Below, piece by piece: positions 8,787 through 62,757 of a DNA stretch of 64,000 bases. This stretch comes from Poseidonibacter antarcticus (GTDB lineage Bacteria > Campylobacterota > Campylobacteria > Campylobacterales > Arcobacteraceae). Positions within the stretch are counted from its first letter, which is position 1. Every line of letters begins with the position of its first letter. The notes beneath the pieces are model-generated. The model did not search any database and was not told the origin of the DNA. It saw only the letters and a list, made by a program, of their open reading frames with translations. Made by a program: the position numbers and the translations under genes. The DNA lies in NCBI RefSeq assembly GCF_003667345.1, contig NZ_RCWF01000002.1, positions 62,001 to 126,000 on the forward strand, read 5' to 3'.

Positions 8787-11277
8787 TTTGATTTCCAAAT
8801 AATTGTTCTAAAATCTTATTTTGTTTATCCTTACTATACTTATTTAATTCTTCTTTTATCTCTTCAAAGCTTTTATTTTTTAAAGTTTTTACAATAATTG
8901 ATATATCAATATCATCTTCAAATAATGATTTGATTTCATCTTCTAATTTATTTTTTAAGAGTGGTTCACCTATATTTGATATGATTTTTTTGGCTTTAAG
9001 TATTTCTTCTGATGAGATATTTTTCTTTTCGATTTTGTACTGTTTTATTAATCCTATAACTTCTTTTATTTTTGTTTGTGCAAATTCACCCATAAAATCA
9101 TCTACAAAGAAACTATCATTATAAATATCATAGATATTTGCACCAAAAGTACTTTTGATTTTTAGTTTATTTTTATCATCAAATTCTTGTTTATCTTTTG
9201 AAAATTTATCATTTTCTTCTTTTTCTAGAAAAACAACTCTATCGCTAGTTATATCTGATAAAATCATAGGTGAATGTGTCGCATATAGAATATAAAACTT
9301 ATTATTTGTATATTTATTTAGGAATTGTATTAATTCAAAAACAAACTTTCTTTGCCATTCAAGATGGAGTTTTAAATCTGCTTCATCTAAAAGAATTAAA
9401 ATATTTTCATTTGAATTCTTTTCCTTAATCTTTCCAATTGCATTGTTTATTCTTGCATTTATTATATCTTTTGCTTTTTGTCCTGAAGAAATTGGAGGGT
9501 CATAAGTAAAAGCAAATGGATTTACAGAATTTTCTATAAATTTATAATATTTATCCATATTTGGATTTTCTTTGTTTTCTAATGGTGATTCATTTTCACT
9601 TATATATCTATTATAAATTACTTTCAAACTAAACTCTAAATCTATACCTTTAGGTCTATTATTCTTAATAAAAAGTGTCTTATATAATTCTTTTTTTTCT
9701 TTACTATCAATATTCTTTAACTTTAAAAACTTTGTTAAATAACAATATATTGTTCTATAACGAGTAAGTATTTTATCTCTATCTTTTAGATTATCATTTT
9801 TCTTAAATTTTTCCATTCTTTTTATCACTAAAAGTTTAAATATCTTATCATCTAAATTTTCTAAATCATTAGCTAGAAGATTATAAAATAATGAATAATT
9901 AGTTTCAATAATATTTTTAATTTCTCTTATTGTTTTTTCTTTATAATCTGTATGTTTTTTCCCTTCAGAAGATAAACTAAGATGAGTCACTTTTTTATCT
10001 AAAAGTAATAAATCTTTAATCTTATTCTTTTTGATAAAATCTTTAATAATAAAATCACTTACCTTCATTTCATTTTTTAAATAAATAAGTTGATATAAAT
10101 CAAAAAACATTCTTTTATCATCTACAGACTCATTCATTGATTTTAATATTTCTATACATTTATTAAATAATTTTTTTACATAAAAATATTCACTTATTCT
10201 AAGATTTTCTAATTCTCTTACATTAATAGTTTCTTGATATAAATCATTAGGAAAAAGACTCCTTAATTTTTTCAAAATATTTTCTAAATCTGGAGTTTTA
10301 ATATCAAAATTTATCTCATTTAAGTTTTTAAAGAAAGTACTATTAAATATACTTTCTTTTTTATCATCTATTAATTTATCTAAAGACTTTAATGCTTCAT
10401 CTTTATTTATCTTATTTTTCTTAAAAAATATATCAATATCATTTTCATATTCATTTAAATATGTATTAACTAAAGAAGAATCATTTTTAATATCATTTAT
10501 AAAAACATCATTTTCTTTAAAAAAGTATTTTCTTATATCTTCAATGATAAATTCAGGAATTTCATTAAAAAAAATTTCAAAATCATCATACTTTTTATCT
10601 CTTTTACATATTTCAATTACTTTTTCAAATAAATTAATATAAGAGTTTTTTAGCATTTCTTTTGCATCTTCAAAAAATGTTTCAGATAAATCAGTTTTAA
10701 TTGAGTAGCCAAACTCTTTCATCTTGTATAAATCATATATTTCTAATTGATTGATTTTATCATCTAAATTATTATCATTTATTTCATTAAGCAATTTGAT
10801 TTCAGATATGTCATAATCGTCATTCAAATTAGTATTAGTCTTTTCTAATAAAGAACTATAATATATTGATTTGAACTCTCTTTTCTTATCAATCTTTTTA
10901 TCATCTATTTTGACTATTAAACTATCATCTTTTTTAAATGGAATATTATTTTTTATTTCAAACAAATTACTTTCTATCATATAAAAAGTATTATTAACTT
11001 CATATACACAAATAGAATAATCATTTTCTTTATCGCGAATTGAATTTAAAAGTACACTTTTACCTGTTCCATTTTCACCAATTAATAAACCAATATCAAT
11101 TGTACTAGAATAAAAATCTTCTAAAAATTCATCATTCTTTATTTTTTTAAAATAAAATTCATTTTCTTTAGATTTCTGTTCATCAAAAGAAAATTTATAT
11201 TTTTTTGATAAATGAATTATTGAACCCTTTTCAAAAGTTCCAAAATCTTTATAAAAATAGATAAAAAGTAATCTCAT
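8773..11277 (-). CDS. AAA/SMC-like ATPase, PtuA-like (Septu-type defence)
   Basis: This 834-residue ABC/OLD-type ATPase has Walker A GENGTGKS at residues 67-74, a very long Lys/Asp-rich helical insertion, a signature-like ISSGQKAKD near residue 600, Walker B ILILLDEADLKLH near 628-640, and the H-loop YATHSPMILSD. The last ~130 residues are helical. Classical PtuA proteins are clearly shorter, so this is an enlarged variant; it could also be assigned to related ATPase-HNH families. Its ATG follows the dapE stop by only 4 nt, so it must be translated from the dapE transcript unless an internal promoter exists. Codon use is even more A/T-biased than in dapE. Confidence 0.72.
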   Translation of the reverse strand: MRLLFIYFYKDFGTFEKGSIIHLSKKYKFSFDEQKSKENEFYFKKIKNDEFLEDFYSSTIDIGLLIGENGTGKSVLLNSIRDKENDYSICVYEVNNTFYMIESNLFEIKNNIPFKKDDSLIVKIDDKKIDKKREFKSIYYSSLLEKTNTNLNDDYDISEIKLLNEINDNNLDDKINQLEIYDLYKMKEFGYSIKTDLSETFFEDAKEMLKNSYINLFEKVIEICKRDKKYDDFEIFFNEIPEFIIEDIRKYFFKENDVFINDIKNDSSLVNTYLNEYENDIDIFFKKNKINKDEALKSLDKLIDDKKESIFNSTFFKNLNEINFDIKTPDLENILKKLRSLFPNDLYQETINVRELENLRISEYFYVKKLFNKCIEILKSMNESVDDKRMFFDLYQLIYLKNEMKVSDFIIKDFIKKNKIKDLLLLDKKVTHLSLSSEGKKHTDYKEKTIREIKNIIETNYSLFYNLLANDLENLDDKIFKLLVIKRMEKFKKNDNLKDRDKILTRYRTIYCYLTKFLKLKNIDSKEKKELYKTLFIKNNRPKGIDLEFSLKVIYNRYISENESPLENKENPNMDKYYKFIENSVNPFAFTYDPPISSGQKAKDIINARINNAIGKIKEKNSNENILILLDEADLKLHLEWQRKFVFELIQFLNKYTNNKFYILYATHSPMILSDITSDRVVFLEKEENDKFSKDKQEFDDKNKLKIKSTFGANIYDIYNDSFFVDDFMGEFAQTKIKEVIGLIKQYKIEKKNISSEEILKAKKIISNIGEPLLKNKLEDEIKSLFEDDIDISIIVKTLKNKSFEEIKEELNKYSKDKQNKILEQLFGNQNDKS

Positions 11278-54756: not shown

Positions 54757-56238
54757 TTATTGAATTTCTGAGTTCAATTTTTCCAATATCTTAACCATCG
54801 CCAAGGTATCCAACTTACAATACTCAATAAGTGCAGTTCGCATTCTTTCTTTTTCGCCCTCTTCCATCTTGCTCATATTTGCAAAGGCGTTCATAGCTTG
54901 GCTTCCATTTTGTACTCCATCTAGTTCTTTGTATGCTTGGGCAAATTTTGGAACTAGTGCTGGTAGTACATATTTGATAGAATATGAACCATTCATTGAT
55001 GGTGTTACGTAGTATTTCTTTTGGAATGGTATCATTAAATCTTTTATATTTTCATTTATACTTAAAAAATTTGTACATAAATTAGGAAAAGAATCTGCTA
55101 GTTTTTTTATAACACCTTTTTCAAAACTCATATTATAAGCTAATACCGTTACATTATTTGGAATATTTTCACACAATGATTTTGCTATTTGCTCTCTTGG
55201 GTCAATTCCATCAAGTGCTAAATACTCTTTGTGTTCTAGTCTTCCATCTTCATACTCAATATGAAGTGAATATTGAAATGGTATTTGTTGGTATGGGCTG
55301 ATAACTTTCCATTCTGGTATGGCTTGTTGGAAAGTTTCAAAATCTAAGTGATAGATAGGATAAGTTAAAGTATCTATGAATTCTTTGATTTTTTCTTTAT
55401 TTATAAATGTTTCTTTTGATTTGTAGATTTGCACTGCTGCTTTTTGATTTGCTGTCATATCAAAATCATCGGGTATATCTTCAATGTTTTTTATACCTTG
55501 TGAATACAATTCAATTTGTTTTTTACTTCCTAGATTGAAGATATTGAAAATAGAATATTCAGGTATTTGTCTTTGCGTTTTCCAACAGTAATCTTTTGCA
55601 TCACAAACGTATGGATCATGACAATGTTTTCCTATATCAATATTTGGTTCGTTTATCTTATCTTCTAATACTGTTTCAAACTCTTTTAAAATACTAGGAA
55701 TATTTATCTGTAAGTCTACAACTTCTTGTGTAATATCTGCAATAGTAAAAAGCTCATCCAATTCTAAAGTATCAGCTCTTATATAAGAGCTATTGATATG
55801 TACTACATTTGCAGTTTTTATAGAAAATCCTAGTTGTTTTAATACATAGTATTGAATAGAAGTATCATGAACATATATATCTTTTACACTTGATGAACTT
55901 TTTACTTCATAAATACAAACTCCATCTTCATTTATTTCTAAAACATCGACCATAACCAAAATACCATCAAAAGAAAAAGTAGCTTCATAAATATACTTGA
56001 TACCATCATCTATATATTTTCTAGTTTGTTTTATCATCTCATCAAAGTTTGTAGTATAGGCAATTTCTCGACCATTTGGGAAAAGTTTACAAGCTAAAGT
56101 TCCTACTTCATTACCTGTTTCAAATCTAGCTAATGCTGTTTCATCTGGTGGAGTTAGTACTTCTTTTCTGTACTTTTTTAGCCAAAGTGCTTTTTGGCAT
56201 TGGATGCCTTTTGTGTATAGCGATTTAGATAGGTTCAT
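54757..56238 (-). CDS. DUF2779 protein: RecB/Cas4-like nuclease fused to a DEDD exonuclease
   Basis: At 493 residues, the N-terminal half has the Cas4/RecB pattern: CQKALWLKKYRKE (first Cys, residue 13), Asp in VMVDVLEIN, the E-x-K pair in VCIYEVKSSS and the QYYVLKQLG motif, followed by Cys residues in GKHCHDPYVCDAKDYCW, apt for a 4Fe-4S cluster. The C-terminal half (from about residue 290) has IYHLDFETFQQAIP (D-x-E), a typical DnaQ-like exonuclease start, and a late AYNMSFEKGVIKKL with final CKLDTLAMVKIL (His replaced or Asp-terminal). It overlaps abi by 14 nt. An almost identical 5' copy lies at 57178-57534. Substrate unknown; likely part of the defence island. Confidence 0.78.
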   Translation of the reverse strand: MNLSKSLYTKGIQCQKALWLKKYRKEVLTPPDETALARFETGNEVGTLACKLFPNGREIAYTTNFDEMIKQTRKYIDDGIKYIYEATFSFDGILVMVDVLEINEDGVCIYEVKSSSSVKDIYVHDTSIQYYVLKQLGFSIKTANVVHINSSYIRADTLELDELFTIADITQEVVDLQINIPSILKEFETVLEDKINEPNIDIGKHCHDPYVCDAKDYCWKTQRQIPEYSIFNIFNLGSKKQIELYSQGIKNIEDIPDDFDMTANQKAAVQIYKSKETFINKEKIKEFIDTLTYPIYHLDFETFQQAIPEWKVISPYQQIPFQYSLHIEYEDGRLEHKEYLALDGIDPREQIAKSLCENIPNNVTVLAYNMSFEKGVIKKLADSFPNLCTNFLSINENIKDLMIPFQKKYYVTPSMNGSYSIKYVLPALVPKFAQAYKELDGVQNGSQAMNAFANMSKMEEGEKERMRTALIEYCKLDTLAMVKILEKLNSEIQ

Positions 56239-57177: not shown

Positions 57178-57534
57178 TCAATAAAATTTTGATTTAATAT
57201 TTAAATAAATACCTTGAATTTTTAATATCTCTACAGACACAGTAATATGATTGAAAGAAAAAGTAGCTTCATAAATATACTTGATACCATCTTCTATATA
57301 TTTTCTAGTTTGTTTTATCATCTCATCAAAGTTTGTAGTATAGACTATTTCTCGACCATTTGGGAAAAGCTCACAAGCTAAGTCCCCTACTTCATTACCC
57401 GTTTCAAATCTAGCTAATGCTGTTTCATCAGGTGGAGTTAGTACTTCTTTATTGTACTTTTTTAGACAAAGTGCTTTTTGGCATTGGATGCCTTTTGTGT
57501 ATAGGGATTTAGATAGGTTCATAGATAAACTCAT
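57178..57534 (-). pseudogene. Truncated duplicate of the DUF2779 gene
   Basis: This 118-codon frame starts at ATG 57534, overlapping the hamB stop (TGATG), or at ATG 57522 that matches the start of the intact gene. It is almost identical to the first ~95 residues of the DUF2779 protein (CQKALCLKKYNKE, TPPDETALARFETGNEVG, EMIKQTRKYIEDGIKYIYEA) and then diverges and stops after IQGIYLNIKSKFY. It lacks the ExK nuclease core, the cysteine cluster and the exonuclease half, so it cannot act as a nuclease. It marks where DUF2779 originally followed hamB. Confidence 0.82.
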
Positions 57535-60044
57535 CAAGCTAATAAATTCTTAATTTCTTGTTTACAAATTTCAGGAATATCTAGAAAATTTACCTCAATA
57601 TTTTGTAATGCCTTAAAACAATTAGTTGAAGACGGTTCTTCACAAGAAAAGTATTTTGATTGTTTTAGTTTAATACTAGTTAGCCTTGATAATCCCAAAG
57701 AAATTAAATTTATTACAATTAGGTCAGCTGATCCACATTCTAAATATAATGGCAAATTAGGAATATTTTCAAATTCATCATCAGTAAGCTTTTTTTCTTC
57801 AATAACTAACTTTAATATGTCTATATATGCACCTGTATATAAAACATATTTGAACCTAACATAACTTTCAATTATATTTAAAGTTTCTCTAATACTAGAA
57901 TTAATTGTTCTTGATGGATTATTCTTTGCGTAGTAATTGTGATTACTATTAATAATTTCACTTAATGTATTATCATGTATCCATGAAGACGCATATTTTG
58001 AATATAGTTTATATTGAAAATTAATTTTATTTAAAAAAATGATATCAATTTTTTCAAATATTTTAGATAATCGTTCATTAGTTCCATCTTCATATGGTAA
58101 TTCTTTCTTCTTTTGAAAAACATTTTTTGGTACCCACAATTTTAAATCATTTTCATTTTTAAAAAAAAGATATAATTCATTTAAACTCTTTGGATGAATA
58201 GAATAATGTTTTTTTATTATTTCGGTAGACACTTCCAACTTATATTTTTCACACTCTGTTATTACTTTTTGTAATTCATCTTTATTAATTAACTTCTTAT
58301 CATCCTTTAAACGTGAATCTCCAATTAAAAAATCAGCATAAAACTTTCCAAAAACAGGTAAGTATTCAATAAATTCTAAAGAATTATGATTTTTGGATAA
58401 TTCTATTAATGATTCACTATTATTATTTAAGATTTTAATATAATATGATTCAATTGTTTGAAGTTTTTCGCCCTCAAAACTCTTATTTTCCCAATCAGAA
58501 GGATCAATACACCATATATTTCCTTGAAATTCACATTTTAATCTACCTGCTCTTCCAATTAAATTAAGAAAATCTCTTCTTTCCATCGGTTTTGATTGTC
58601 CTTTAAAAGGATTAAATAATATGATGTTTTTTGTTGGAAGATTAACTCCTTGAAGAAGAGTACTTGTTGAAAAAACAAATTTTAACTTTCCATCACTTGC
58701 TAATTTCTCTATACTTGCCCTTACCGTTGATGGCACTTTCCCATAATGATAAGATACACCTTTTTTTAAACACTTTATAAGAGAATAATCTTTGTGAATA
58801 TCTTCTTCAATAAAATTTATTAATGATTCTATTTCTTCATCAACTACTTCCTCCTCAATTGAGTCCGCAATCTTTAATGCTAACCTTTCTGTATCTGATG
58901 GATTATTACAATAAATTAAAGTTAACTCATCATCTTTTGTAATTTCCTTTGCTAATGTAATCATGCGATCACTTTTTCGGAATTTTCCGTTAAAGTTTAT
59001 TTCACCTAAATCAATATATTCATTACTGTGTAATAACTCCATCTTTGCTAATTTTGGTTTTCTACTTATAGAAGATAGAAAAATTATATTTTGACCAACA
59101 GGAGACAAATTCTCTGTAAAATATTTTTTATCAGTATCTAAATCTAAAAGATCATTGAAATATTCAGGATTACTAATTAAAGGACTTGCAAAAAATAAAT
59201 TAATATTTGGAAATCTACGGAGTATAATTTCTAATGTATTTTGGAGAACCACTCCTCTATTACTTTGTATTTCTTGTGCTTCATCAACAAATAATGTGTC
59301 CAAAGAAATTTCTGTTTCACATAATAGTGTATTTAATCTTTCTTGAGTCAATACATATATAATACCTTTATCATTAATATCATCTTCTACAAGAGGAACA
59401 GTCCTTACATTTATATCATTAGCTAAATTATATTCTTTTAATCCATTAAAAACTTTTTCACTTAATTCTTTTATCAATGCTCTTGTAGGTACAACTAACA
59501 CAATTTTTTCTTTCTTATTTTGAATAAATCTTTTAATAATAGATAATGTGAAAACATAAGATTTCCCAGCGGATGTTGGAGCAGAAACACTATAAAATTT
59601 TTCATTAGTTAATATATCAAAAAACTGTTTTTGAAAATCTGTTAATAATGATTTATTACCCAATAGATTAATACTATTTTCAACTTCTCTAGAAATAGTT
59701 TCAATTTTTAAAATTGGGCTTTGATTAAGATTATTGTCATTAAAACCATAGTCATTTAATAATTCTCTATTTGGAAAATTACCTAATCTTGATAAAATTG
59801 AATATGCGATTGAATATAAGTTTGGATATGAACTATGAAAAATTTTAAATAATTTTGTAATTATTTCATAAGCTAATGCTTGTTCTTCATTATTATCACT
59901 TAATGATTTTATTGAAGAAATTTTACATAAATATTCAATTTCTTCTTCAGATATTTTACAATCATTAATTAATTCTAAACCTTCATGTAAGTTTTGACTA
60001 ATATCCATAATTACTAACTTGTTTATAATTTCTGTTTCATTCAT
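57534..60044 (-). CDS. hamB: Hachiman helicase HamB
   Basis: The 836-residue SF2 helicase has Walker A in FYSVSAPTSAGKSYVF near residues 147-158, the DEAH/Q box LFVDEAQEIQS near 250, motif III FFASPLISN, motif IV-V FSTSTLLQGVNLPTKNIILF and the arginine-finger motif FLNLIGRAGRLKCEFQG. Length and the low-complexity C-terminus agree with HamB. It follows hamA by 12 nt on the same strand. HamA-HamB form the Hachiman anti-phage system in which the helicase senses DNA damage or free ends and releases the HamA nuclease. Confidence 0.85.
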   Translation of the reverse strand: MNETEIINKLVIMDISQNLHEGLELINDCKISEEEIEYLCKISSIKSLSDNNEEQALAYEIITKLFKIFHSSYPNLYSIAYSILSRLGNFPNRELLNDYGFNDNNLNQSPILKIETISREVENSINLLGNKSLLTDFQKQFFDILTNEKFYSVSAPTSAGKSYVFTLSIIKRFIQNKKEKIVLVVPTRALIKELSEKVFNGLKEYNLANDINVRTVPLVEDDINDKGIIYVLTQERLNTLLCETEISLDTLFVDEAQEIQSNRGVVLQNTLEIILRRFPNINLFFASPLISNPEYFNDLLDLDTDKKYFTENLSPVGQNIIFLSSISRKPKLAKMELLHSNEYIDLGEINFNGKFRKSDRMITLAKEITKDDELTLIYCNNPSDTERLALKIADSIEEEVVDEEIESLINFIEEDIHKDYSLIKCLKKGVSYHYGKVPSTVRASIEKLASDGKLKFVFSTSTLLQGVNLPTKNIILFNPFKGQSKPMERRDFLNLIGRAGRLKCEFQGNIWCIDPSDWENKSFEGEKLQTIESYYIKILNNNSESLIELSKNHNSLEFIEYLPVFGKFYADFLIGDSRLKDDKKLINKDELQKVITECEKYKLEVSTEIIKKHYSIHPKSLNELYLFFKNENDLKLWVPKNVFQKKKELPYEDGTNERLSKIFEKIDIIFLNKINFQYKLYSKYASSWIHDNTLSEIINSNHNYYAKNNPSRTINSSIRETLNIIESYVRFKYVLYTGAYIDILKLVIEEKKLTDDEFENIPNLPLYLECGSADLIVINLISLGLSRLTSIKLKQSKYFSCEEPSSTNCFKALQNIEVNFLDIPEICKQEIKNLLA

Positions 60045-60056
60045 AGTATTATCCTA

Positions 60057-60989
60057 TTATAGTTTTGCATTAAAAGAATTTCTTAACTCTTGTACACTTT
60101 GAAATGGTAGAAAAAAAACATCAAAAGAAAATTCTTTTTTTGAAAACTTATCAAATCTCGATTGAATTAAAGAAGTTAGTCGTTTGGTTTCTTCTTCGTA
60201 TAATGTAACAAAATTTTCTATAAAATACTTCCTCTCATCATTATCAAGTTTCATATATTGATCCCAGTCATAACCAATAAGACAAGCATGTCTTATTTTA
60301 ACTTCATCTTGTTCTATTTGATTTGTAATAAATTGATAAACTTTATCTTGCTGACTGTCATTTAAATGTTTATAATGAGTTGTAACTAAATTATATTCTC
60401 TTGAATGCATTGAGTCTTCATGAAATTTTTCTATACTCTCAAATGCGCTATCAAGTGCCCCATATATATTATTATAAAATTTAGCTTCACCAAAATATAA
60501 GTTTAAAACTTCTTCATCTATTTTTACATGTATCCCATCTGAGCCAAAAACTTCTAATTTTGAATTCGTTTTTAAATCCATTTTTGCAACTATTTGTGGA
60601 GCTTTCAAAATTACTTCCATAAGTAACCACAAAATCATTTCTCCTATTTCTCCAGCTTTAGGTTGATTGTCATCAGTTATATCCTCATCTTTCCATTTCC
60701 TAAATAAAGCCCTAGCCTCATCTTTTAATTGACTAAAAAACATTTCTTTTTCTACATCACTCATTCCATCACTATTTCTTTTTTTTGATGAAAAACAATA
60801 ATGTGTAAAATAAGCAAACAATATATCAATTAATTTATCTATTTTTGGATTTCCATTTGGGTCAAATTTTAAATACTTAAAATGTAAATCAACTTCAACC
60901 CCATTAACAATATTTGTATGTTCAACATTGTCAAAAACCATATCATAATATTTTTTTGAACCAATAATATATTTTTCTAATTCATTCAT
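60057..60989 (-). CDS. hamA: Hachiman effector nuclease HamA (DUF1837)
   Basis: The 310-residue protein matches DUF1837. The nuclease core is visible: QPKAGEIGEMILWLLMEVIL (Glu-114, Glu-117), KLEVFGSDGIHV (Asp-151) and VLNLYFGEAKFYN (Glu-168, Lys-170), i.e. a PD-(D/E)xK site. HamA degrades DNA in the cytosol once freed from HamB. The adjacent helicase supports a complete Hachiman system. The start MNELEKYI is at ATG 60989, preceded by AGGAAAATTAT. Confidence 0.87.
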   Translation of the reverse strand: MNELEKYIIGSKKYYDMVFDNVEHTNIVNGVEVDLHFKYLKFDPNGNPKIDKLIDILFAYFTHYCFSSKKRNSDGMSDVEKEMFFSQLKDEARALFRKWKDEDITDDNQPKAGEIGEMILWLLMEVILKAPQIVAKMDLKTNSKLEVFGSDGIHVKIDEEVLNLYFGEAKFYNNIYGALDSAFESIEKFHEDSMHSREYNLVTTHYKHLNDSQQDKVYQFITNQIEQDEVKIRHACLIGYDWDQYMKLDNDERKYFIENFVTLYEEETKRLTSLIQSRFDKFSKKEFSFDVFFLPFQSVQELRNSFNAKL

Positions 60990-61012
60990 ATAATTTTCCT
61001 ATTTTTAAACAT

Positions 61013-61828
61013 TTACATTTCCAATATTGAATTTGCAAGTCTTTTTTCTGTTCCAATTAAAGTAGTATAATATCGTTGTTCAATTCCAAATAGTACTAAC
61101 TTGAGATGATCTTCTGTTTCAATAACAAATGTATTATTACTAATATTTAAATCAACACAATAAGATTGTGTATAATCACAAATTTGAATAACTTCATCAT
61201 CAGTAAAACGACTAAGAGTATCTAGTGCCATAGCAATTCTTCTTCTATTTGCAACTTTAACACTTGCCGAAGTAAAATTATTTCCTAATGAAATAAAATC
61301 TTTATTAAGAAAAGTATTAACTTCAACTTGAGTTGCTTCTCTATAAAGGTCACCTATCCCGTTAAACATTTGCTTTATTTTTACAATATCTTTAAAATAA
61401 AGGATATCTTCGTCTTTATTATAAATTGCGTCAATCCAATCATTTATTACTATAATTGGTTTATCTCTTTGTAATGAAGGAGAATCTGAAATATGAAGCC
61501 ATTTTTTTGATAGTAGTTGAGTTTGTGATAATTTTTGGAATAAAAATAAATTATCTTGTTTACAACATAGGTATATAATATCTTTATATTGTATTGGTAA
61601 AATCTGATTATGATTTGTACCAGAAAAAGTTCTCTCTATTAAACCATTTCTAAAAGTACGTCCCAAAAAATTATCTAATCTAAACCACTCATCATCATCT
61701 AGCTTGTACGTAGGTGCATAATTTTCATTATTTGATAAGTCTGGTACCTCAAAGATACTATCTCTTGTTGCTATAACCTTTAAAAAGTTATCACCTCTGC
61801 CTTTTATTTTTGCTAATAAATAATTCAT
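61013..61828 (-). CDS. KwaB-like protein (DUF4868-type) of a Kiwa-like pair
   Basis: The 271-residue soluble protein has an N-terminal beta-rich part (LLAKIKGRGDNFLKVIATR) and a C-terminal region (NRRRIAMALDTLSRFTDDEV, YTQSYCVDLNISNNTF, LVLFGIEQRYYTTLIGTEKR) that resembles the DUF4868/KwaB pattern of conserved Arg and Tyr-Thr residues before a terminal helix. Its ATG overlaps the stop of the tetraspan membrane protein gene (ATGA), the same linkage as kwaA-kwaB. The assignment rests on this architecture; similarity to KwaB is remembered, not searched. Kiwa acts at the membrane against phage infection. It lies 23 nt from hamA. Confidence 0.58.
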   Translation of the reverse strand: MNYLLAKIKGRGDNFLKVIATRDSIFEVPDLSNNENYAPTYKLDDDEWFRLDNFLGRTFRNGLIERTFSGTNHNQILPIQYKDIIYLCCKQDNLFLFQKLSQTQLLSKKWLHISDSPSLQRDKPIIVINDWIDAIYNKDEDILYFKDIVKIKQMFNGIGDLYREATQVEVNTFLNKDFISLGNNFTSASVKVANRRRIAMALDTLSRFTDDEVIQICDYTQSYCVDLNISNNTFVIETEDHLKLVLFGIEQRYYTTLIGTEKRLANSILEM

Positions 61829-62441
61829 TCTTCTTCCTTTTTTATATCAATAAATGTATAATTTGTAATTCTTTTTAGTTCACTGAATTCAATATCTAAG
61901 GTATTCTTTAACTCTCTCTTGGTTATTAATAATACTTTTACATTATTATTATTTGTCACATAATAAAAGTTAAATCCAAAGAGAAAAAACATTGGATTAA
62001 AATAAGATATTCTTGAATAAAATATAAATATTGCAATTATTCCAAATACTACAAAAAATATTTGAATATCTGTTACGCTTAATGCTACGAAAAAATATCC
62101 CAAATAGCTTGGTAAAAAAGCATCATTTGCTGGTTCAATATTAGTTATTGTATTTTCTTCAATACTGTCATCTGATAAATATTTAATAAAAAATATACTA
62201 ATACTAGATAAAATTAGTATCACTATAAAATAAATAGAATAAGAAACCATATTTAATACTTCATATAAGTTATTTATAATAAATTCAGATCCAATTTTTT
62301 TTCTACTAGATAACTACATGTTTGATAATAATAATATTCGATGCTTTCAATTGTCATTTTATTATTAATTGCAAAAATTACAAAAGATAAGGATAGAGAA
62401 TTTATTATTAAAAAAAATCTAAATATATAACTCATAATCAT
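61825..62441 (-). pseudogene. KwaA-like tetraspan membrane protein, split by a frameshift at an A8 tract
   Basis: Two frames cover this span: 62441-62274 (MIMSYIFRFFL... ending VEKKLDLNLL) and 62250-61825 (MVSYSIYF..., 141 residues). At 62295-62302 the minus strand has eight A's. One added A turns the reading into VEKKIGSEFIINNLYEVLNM and runs straight into the second frame, giving about 205 residues with four membrane segments (TM1 SYIFRFFLIINS, TM2 YSIYFIVILILSSIS, TM3/4 in LGYFFVALSV...IIAIFIFY and FFLFGFNFYY). That is the size and topology of KwaA. The cause may be phase variation, slippage or a sequencing error. Confidence 0.7.
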
Positions 62442-62442
62442 A

Positions 62443-62757
62443 TTAGGAATATACTCCCCAATCTCTTTCAAAAATCCAATTTGGTTCCCATTTTACATAA
62501 TCTGCGGGATCAAAACTTTCAGATTCTAATACATTAATTTCTTGTATTTGATTAGGAAATAATGGTAGGTTATGTCTACTATTTGGACTGTTTAAATCAA
62601 AGAAATGATATTTATCACTTTTATCCTTTGATTTAGAACTAACTCCATAATCGAATGGAACACATTTTCTTTCTCTGATTTGACCATCACTCTTAGCAAT
62701 AAACCTAACCTCTATTAACTTTTTATTATTAATCGCTTCTAAAAACTTTTCTAACAT
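62443..62757 (-). CDS. Small conserved hypothetical protein between sbcC and the Kiwa-like genes
   Basis: The 104-residue protein is soluble and starts at ATG 62757 with AAAAGGAAAAG upstream, 12 nt after sbcC. It begins with a helix (EKFLEAINNKKLIEVRFIAKS) followed by a strand-rich part, DGQIRERKCVPFDYGVSSK and NLPLFPNQIQEINVLESESF, that recalls the WYL fold (a basic strand, then R-x-F/P-I/L motifs), though the match is loose. The end VKWEPNWIFERDWGVYS is aromatic. It is the first gene after sbcC and may be co-transcribed with both sides. I cannot name a function. Confidence 0.6.
   Translation of the reverse strand: MLEKFLEAINNKKLIEVRFIAKSDGQIRERKCVPFDYGVSSKSKDKSDKYHFFDLNSPNSRHNLPLFPNQIQEINVLESESFDPADYVKWEPNWIFERDWGVYS

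What the first reader, a model, noticed from the sequence alone, without database searches (positions are those of the whole stretch)
61825..62441. KwaA-like membrane gene interrupted at an A8 tract; one extra A restores a ~205-aa tetraspan protein
Seen directly: upstream of the 141-residue membrane ORF the same frame reads KIGSEFIINNLYEVLN without a stop back to an eight-A run, and the adjacent 5' ORF (ATG 62441) runs into that tract in the other frame. Adding one A (A9) joins them into one protein with four membrane segments and an ATGA link to the KwaB-like gene. Homopolymer phase variation is common in Campylobacterota, and A-tract transcriptional slippage or -1 frameshifting could also give a mixed output. 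An on/off Kiwa-type defence gene would be notable.
Basis: partly seen in the sequence, partly recalled or inferred. Interest (0 to 1): 0.78.

Follow-up and report, generated by a model that had tools for sequence, protein, structure and literature searches.

The report
Frame-broken kwaA defence gene
A bacterial anti-phage (Kiwa) membrane gene is broken by a one-base reading-frame slip at a run of eight A's; relatives carry it whole, so this looks like a recent off-copy that might switch back, but nothing here shows that it does.

Summary
On the minus strand a 55-aa frame (ATG 62441) runs into A8 at 62295-62302; the -1 frame carries the rest of a tetraspan protein and ends in an ATGA overlap with kwaB. 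Both pieces match one gene, kwaA of Kiwa, which four close relatives encode as one 200-203 aa frame. A relative's predicted structure matches solved KwaA, with moderate scores. A frame-switch scan peaks at the tract.

Programmed frameshifting is not supported: no tract there in those relatives, no stem-loop stimulator, and 79 of 79 other kwaA genes are single frames (a set that favours intact genes). Both pieces still look constrained, so the break is recent or some product is made. This contig avoids A runs of 8 or more and the genome has no MutL hit, so slippage is plausible, but A8 is common here.

Kiwa genes are interrupted in 7 of 26 other loci found in the same phylum, 6 of them without such a run being shown at the break. 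Two further kwaB genes (one there, one Halomonas) are broken exactly at A8 in the same register. Best reading: a recent single-lesion off allele. Reversible switching, leaky slippage and an assembly error remain open.

The parts
62274..62441 (-). 5' piece of kwaA (55 aa, TM helix 1), ends in frame 1 just after the tract
   Evidence: KwaA profile 1-46 of 179, E 2.7e-7
62295..62302 (-). A8 run at which the reading frame of kwaA is broken (-1 register)
61825..62295 (-). 3' piece of kwaA in the -1 frame (156 aa; own first ATG at 62250 gives 141 aa): TM2-TM4 and C-terminal domain
   Evidence: PADLOC KwaA 2.5e-15 for the 141-aa ORF; profile 32-177 of 179, E 1.4e-58
61013..61828 (-). kwaB, 271 aa, full length by profile; ATG overlaps the kwaA stop (ATGA)
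   Evidence: PADLOC KwaB 1e-16; profile 1-274 of 275
60057..60989 (-). hamA of a Hachiman system, full length by profile, 23 bp after kwaB
   Evidence: PADLOC HamA 1.5e-87 (profile 8-310 of 312); Pfam HamA 1.1e-49
57534..60044 (-). hamB helicase of the Hachiman system, full length by profile
   Evidence: PADLOC HamB 1.1e-227 (profile 19-858 of 864)
62443..62757 (-). 104-aa ORF of unknown family directly upstream of kwaA
   Evidence: no PADLOC or Pfam match at E 1

Best explanation
The feature is kwaA of a Kiwa anti-phage pair. It sits at the 5' side of a Hachiman operon and is interrupted by a recent one-nucleotide frameshift at an A8 run, so in this genome it is an off (or very low) allele. 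Ribosomes starting at 62441 make a 55-aa fragment with TM1 only. A three-TM fragment could at most be made by re-initiation at 62250, and kwaB loses its normal ATGA translational coupling to kwaA (both inferred). Loss by slippage in an A-rich stretch is the likely origin (inferred). Return to the open frame by a later slip is possible in principle but not shown. HamA and HamB are full length, so Hachiman should be unaffected (inferred).
For: KwaA and KwaB by profile and KwaA fold of the same-genus relative L003 to 9mrx_A and 9mrg. Single frames of 200-203 aa in L003, L014, L015 and L016 and single open frames in 79 of 79 loci. The frame switch maps to the tract, in the turn at residues 44-46 between a loop helix and TM2 of the L003 model. 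Both pieces are conserved: against L015, N part dN 0.27 / dS 0.76, C part 0.17 / 1.38, kwaB 0.25 / 0.82 (dS is near saturation), so no sign of long decay. A runs of 8 or more are avoided in this contig (sense A8 89 against 151 expected, A9+ 14 against 78), as expected if they slip. No MutL match in the genome; the same search rings in 11 of 14 control genomes. Interrupted Kiwa genes are frequent among the loci found in the phylum: 8 of 27, this one included.
Against: The break is known from one assembly only, so an assembly error cannot be excluded. No proof that the allele is off: slippage at A8 or re-initiation at 62250 could give some product. Conserved halves fit a gene that is still expressed as well as a recent loss.
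Confidence: 0.6

Rival explanations
1. Reversible phase variation: the A8 tract is a contingency locus that switches Kiwa on and off by replication slippage, and is kept by selection.
For: Single clean lesion at a homopolymer in a genome with no MutL match; runs of 8 or more avoided, hence slippery; both halves constrained. Two other Kiwa genes are broken exactly at A8 in the same register: kwaB of L032 and kwaB of L080, Halomonas sp. QHL1. Runs of 8 or more are less depleted in kwaA (ratio to shuffles 0.88) than in the other genes of the same loci (0.46). A BREX discussion (PMC6326788, one passage) mentions phase variation by a homopolymer in brxX.
Against: The tract is not conserved: L003, L014, L015 and L016 lack it at that place (for L016 by its copy L038). 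Runs of 8 or more are not enriched over synonymous shuffles in kwaA (13 against 14.7) or kwaB (10 against 21.3). In L032, and by the protein alignment probably in L080, intact relatives carry a non-A base or its residue in that stretch, so the A8 may be the product of the lesion and not an old switch. Other interrupted Kiwa genes of the phylum show an in-frame stop (L007), a frame change without a long run (L023, L150), several lesions (L028, L154) or an apparent deletion (L151).
Confidence: 0.13
2. Slippage supplies full-length KwaA: RNA polymerase adds an A at A8, or ribosomes shift -1 at A_AAA_AAA, giving a low, possibly useful dose.
For: The zero-frame heptamer A_AAA_AAA is present. A11 in C. 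rodentium tssM1 gives about 20% frame restoration by transcriptional slippage (PMC4256274 sections 7-8). A passage of PMC1088944 cites a human gene in which a run of eight As gives about a tenth full-length product, and says that in some bacteria shorter runs than nine may slip. Conserved halves; avoidance of A8 in this contig.
Against: No stem-loop after the tract (z +1.62, 191 of 200 shuffles fold at least as well) and no Shine-Dalgarno-like element before it (by eye). In E. coli, frameshift-prone heptamers without stimulators reach only 2.1 to 10 times a 0.055% background (PMC4066793 section 17). Selection against slippage is evident at nine in a large proportion of bacterial genomes (PMC1088944 passages). 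Relatives do not use it.
Confidence: 0.12
3. Assembly or sequencing error in the homopolymer; the gene is intact.
For: Draft of 55 contigs with no reads available; a homopolymer length change is a typical miscall (recalled).
Against: 150 A/T runs of 8 or more lie in 444 kb of this contig. Of 14 listed run-linked frame changes at runs of 7 or more (13 sites, two rows being one gene pair) only kwaA looked like a genuinely split gene (by eye). So homopolymer miscalls are not widespread, although the filter sees only splits of some size.
Confidence: 0.13
4. Two cooperating polypeptides: a TM1 peptide and a separately started three-TM fragment reassemble into KwaA.
For: ATG 62250 lies 23 bases after the stop of the first piece and just before the membrane part of TM2.
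Against: No relative in the 79 loci is split this way; the 15 codons before ATG 62250 align with coding sequence of the joined protein in the close relatives; only a weak ribosome-binding sequence before 62250 (by eye).
Confidence: 0.02

Closest known systems
Kiwa (KwaA-KwaB) anti-phage system
   Same: KwaA profile and fold, four TM helices with a C-terminal strand-rich domain, kwaB directly downstream
   Different: kwaA is frame-broken here; sequence is remote from the solved KwaA (no PDB sequence match at E 1); the pair is followed at once by hamA and hamB
Phase-variable defence genes (brxX of BREX, one passage; type I and III R-M genes, recalled)
   Same: A coding homopolymer in a phage-defence gene with a one-unit frame break
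   Different: Tract is short (A8), not conserved, and no length variation has been seen
Poly-A rescue of interrupted genes (C. rodentium tssM1, PMC4256274)
   Same: Interrupted gene with a poly-A run before the early stop
   Different: A8, not A11; no product measured; relatives intact

Membership tests
Kiwa (KwaA) | KwaA sequence profile | tested here: met
   PDLC00216 2.5e-15 (141-aa ORF); both pieces by the relatives' profile
Kiwa (KwaA) | KwaA fold, four membrane helices | tested here: met
   Tested on the intact same-genus homologue L003, not on the window copy: pLDDT 84.5; 9mrx_A E 7.8e-5, 9mrg_B 4.5e-4 and 9mrg_D 7.7e-4 are the only matches at E 0.001 or less; TM-scores moderate, 0.43-0.57
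Kiwa (KwaB) | KwaB (DUF4868) gene next to kwaA | tested here: met
   61013-61828, 1e-16; ATGA overlap
Kiwa | one uninterrupted kwaA reading frame | tested here: not met
   Broken at 62295-62302; so this is a Kiwa locus with a broken kwaA, not an intact Kiwa system
Kiwa | phage defence activity | not testable with these tools
   needs a plaque assay
Phase-variable contingency locus | tract length differs between cells or strains | not testable with these tools
   one assembly; no reads or second strain held
Phase-variable contingency locus | tract kept in related genes or enriched beyond codon choice | tested here: not met
   absent at that place in L003, L014, L015 and L016 (by its copy L038); runs of 8 or more not enriched in kwaA or kwaB over shuffles, though less depleted in kwaA than in neighbouring genes
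Programmed -1 frameshift | slippery heptamer in frame | tested here: met
   A_AAA_AAA, zero frame; trivially true for an A8 run in this register
Programmed -1 frameshift | stimulator and conservation in relatives | tested here: not met

The most novel reading that the evidence does not exclude
Kiwa genes are repeatedly kept in a slippery A8, -1-register, frame-broken state (here kwaA; kwaB in L032 and in Halomonas L080). Slippage at A8 then gives a low, tunable or switchable dose of a costly membrane defence complex, while other lesions lead to full decay.
Probability: 0.1. Interest if true: 0.6.

Novelty: new member of a known kind. Interest (0 to 1): 0.3.

Why it matters
If the A8 allele switches or leaks, Kiwa would join the defence systems whose cost is managed by heterogeneous expression, and the three A8-broken loci would be ready test cases. 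If not, the locus is one more example of Kiwa inactivation in this phylum (8 of the 27 loci found here), and a caution for annotation tools that call KwaA from a 141-aa fragment.

Tried and rejected
Programmed frameshift: rejected as the main reading, because the tract is not conserved and no stimulator was found. Widespread homopolymer miscalls: not supported in 444 kb. Two separate genes: rejected by the single frames in relatives. Kiwa genes as enriched in long runs over synonymous shuffles: tested, not so (kwaA 0.88, kwaB 0.47, other genes 0.46 of expectation). Relatives in phages (tblastn with KwaB) and in viral contigs (KwaA alignments): none. Plasmids: one match covering 13% of the query. 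Solved-structure sequence search for KwaA and KwaB: nothing at E 1. Uniform single-base deletions would leave exactly A8 at 26 of 43008 positions in kwaA (0.06%) and 57 of 64440 in kwaB (0.09%), so three A8 breaks are more than uniform deletion gives. But slippage hot spots explain this without selection, and L080 and L032 were noticed before the count, so I do not use it as a test.

Limits: the 79 loci are from the best 80 of 127 relatives, ranked by match, which favours intact genes, and three of them (L037-L039) are the same or near-same loci as L014-L016. One search holds 78 of the 79 kwaA genes (L040 was missed by my ORF caller). In one search the power to see breaks in genes other than Kiwa is lower, and L032 and the window were put in knowingly. 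The 27 loci are those met in sampled genomes (150 relatives, 397 of the phylum, 104 of the family, 398 of the order, overlapping sets), not a census. L034, L008, L017 and L019 had a KwaA match but no KwaB match and were left out; L005 is cut by its contig end and was counted as not interrupted; kwaA beside L152 was not examined; the breaks in kwaB of L028 were not checked for runs. The C part was cut one codon early, which adds one unaligned column at its front. That the genomes are Campylobacterota is inferred from named records that match these loci (Sulfurimonas, Sulfurospirillaceae).

Full report
WHAT IS THERE. On the minus strand, downstream of an SbcC-like ATPase (Pfam SbcC_Walker_B) and a 104-aa ORF with no family match, a frame starting at ATG 62441 reads 55 residues, runs through A8 at 62302-62295, and stops at 62274-62276. 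The -1 frame is open from the tract to 61825. It holds the rest of the protein, and its stop overlaps the ATG of the next gene as ATGA. That gene is kwaB; hamA and hamB of a Hachiman system follow.

IT IS ONE BROKEN GENE. The 141-aa downstream ORF matches KwaA in PADLOC (2.5e-15). The same-genus relative L003 and the relatives L014, L015 and L016 (same order, other families) encode a single KwaA of 201, 202, 200 and 203 aa whose two ends match the two window pieces. A profile from other loci finds both window pieces, positions 1-46 and 32-177 of 179. Sliding the frame change along the gene gives the best similarity at or just before the tract (276 against 98 without a change and 76 for the other direction; places within about six codons score nearly as well, 265 to 276). 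The AlphaFold model of L003 (31 rows, pLDDT 84.5) has helices 2-24, 30-43, 47-86, 104-120 and 124-140 and a C-terminal strand-rich part. Its only solved matches at E 0.001 or less are KwaA (9mrx_A, 9mrg_B, 9mrg_D), with moderate TM-scores of 0.43-0.57. The break falls at residues 44-46, in a loop that most rows of the wider family have shorter. The lost part, TM1, holds nearly invariant residues R6, L9, N12, S15 and L16.

IS THE FRAMESHIFT USED? No sign of it. All 79 loci of the genome scan carry kwaA as one open frame (175-258 codons; the set favours intact genes), and the close relatives have no A run at that place (L016 by its copy L038). The RNA after the tract folds worse than its shuffles (z +1.62). 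In E. coli, frameshift-prone heptamers without stimulators give 2.1 to 10 times a 0.055% background (PMC4066793, section 17). [quoted passage not shown] A11 in C. rodentium tssM1 gives about 20% (PMC4256274, sections 7 and 8). So A8 may leak, but a programmed role has no support.

IS IT RECENT? Nei-Gojobori distances show constraint in both pieces, much as in kwaB (synonymous sites are near saturation). The gene was therefore under selection until recently, or still is.

IS A8 SPECIAL HERE? In 444 kb of the contig there are 127 A/T runs of exactly 8 and 23 longer ones. In the sense strand of 375 called ORFs, A6 and A7 are above synonymous-shuffle expectation, but A8 (89 against 150.9) and A9+ (14 against 78.2) are depleted; none of 200 shuffles was as low. 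The contig thus seems to avoid slippery lengths, and MutL is not found in the genome, although a MutS domain is. Still, there is about one such run for every four ORFs. Of 14 listed frame changes at runs of 7 or more, which are 13 sites since two rows are one gene pair, only kwaA looked like a split gene; the rest looked like neighbouring genes with their own start or frames opposite to genes (judged by eye).

OTHER BROKEN KIWA GENES. In the sampled genomes of this phylum I count 27 kwaA/kwaB loci, 23 and four more. Eight have an interrupted gene: the window (kwaA), L023 (kwaA, no long run), L028 (both genes, several pieces), L007 (kwaB, in-frame stop), L032 (kwaB, exactly at A8), L150 (kwaB, frame change with no run of 7 or more there), L154 (kwaB, several) and L151 (kwaB lacks its first part, an apparent deletion). 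Among the 79 wider loci, kwaA is never interrupted, kwaB is once (L080, Halomonas sp. QHL1), again exactly at an A8 in the same register, and one kwaB (L079) is cut by its contig end. That makes three independent A8 breaks. In L032 the intact same-genus relative L026 has one non-A base inside the same stretch, and in L080 several relatives' proteins have a glutamate there, so the A8 may be the product of the lesion. Long runs are not enriched in kwaA or kwaB over shuffles, though kwaA is less depleted (0.88) than the other genes of these loci (0.46). Among 150 run-linked candidates in the 79 loci, the window and L032, the only homology-supported breaks were these three Kiwa genes, but breaks in other genes were harder to see and two of the three loci were put in knowingly. 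I read this as slippage-prone A-rich stretches plus frequent loss of Kiwa. Selection for switchable or leaky alleles is possible but not shown.

LIKELY CONSEQUENCE (inferred). Published summaries describe KwaA as the inner-membrane tetramer that senses infection and brings KwaB to the incoming DNA (PMC12904381, passages). Another says that KwaB can act without KwaA but that KwaA is believed to be needed for its controlled expression (PMC11514479, passages). The A8 allele should therefore disable normal Kiwa and weaken kwaB translation by removing the ATGA coupling, with Hachiman left alone; KwaB acting alone is not excluded.

NOVELTY. In the searches for phase variation with defence or Arcobacter terms (8 of 8 listed, 12 of 18 listed), none of the listed titles concerns Kiwa; I did not read those papers beyond one BREX passage, and the primary Kiwa paper was not held. 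A homopolymer frame break in a defence gene is a known kind of thing. What may be new is the gene and the recurrence at A8.

Wording, counts and call numbers were mended, and results against my reading were added (A8 slippage in a human gene; kwaA less depleted in long runs).

Noticed in passing
L037-L115, gene directly upstream of kwaA: This branch of kwaAB is often appended to restriction or Hachiman operons. 28 of 79 loci have a same-strand gene within 60 bp upstream; among these 28, 13 match Methylase_S (HsdS), 10 HSDR_N (HsdR) and 1 MmeI (counts per family), and 2 are HamB by phmmer. No listed title (12 of 37 listed; 15 of 15) describes this; those papers were not read for it.
   Followed up: partly
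window 57534-61828; L014, L015: Kiwa and Hachiman are adjacent in both orders: kwaA-kwaB-hamA-hamB here, hamB-kwaA-kwaB in L014 and L015 with different best-matching HamB models.
   Followed up: partly
L080 about 10747-10754: kwaB of Halomonas sp. QHL1 is frame-broken exactly at an A8 run.
   Followed up: partly
   Followed up: partly
window 54757-56238 and 57178-57537: The 119-aa ORF after hamB looks like a truncated duplicate of the start of the 493-aa ORF at 54757-56238 (by eye).
   Followed up: no
downstream of kwaB in L037-L115: RhuM-family genes lie within 60 bp after kwaB in 5 of the 24 loci with such a same-strand gene.
   Followed up: no
G000 whole genome: A MutS_I match (994-codon frame) but no MutL match (PF01119) in the window's genome.
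   Followed up: no
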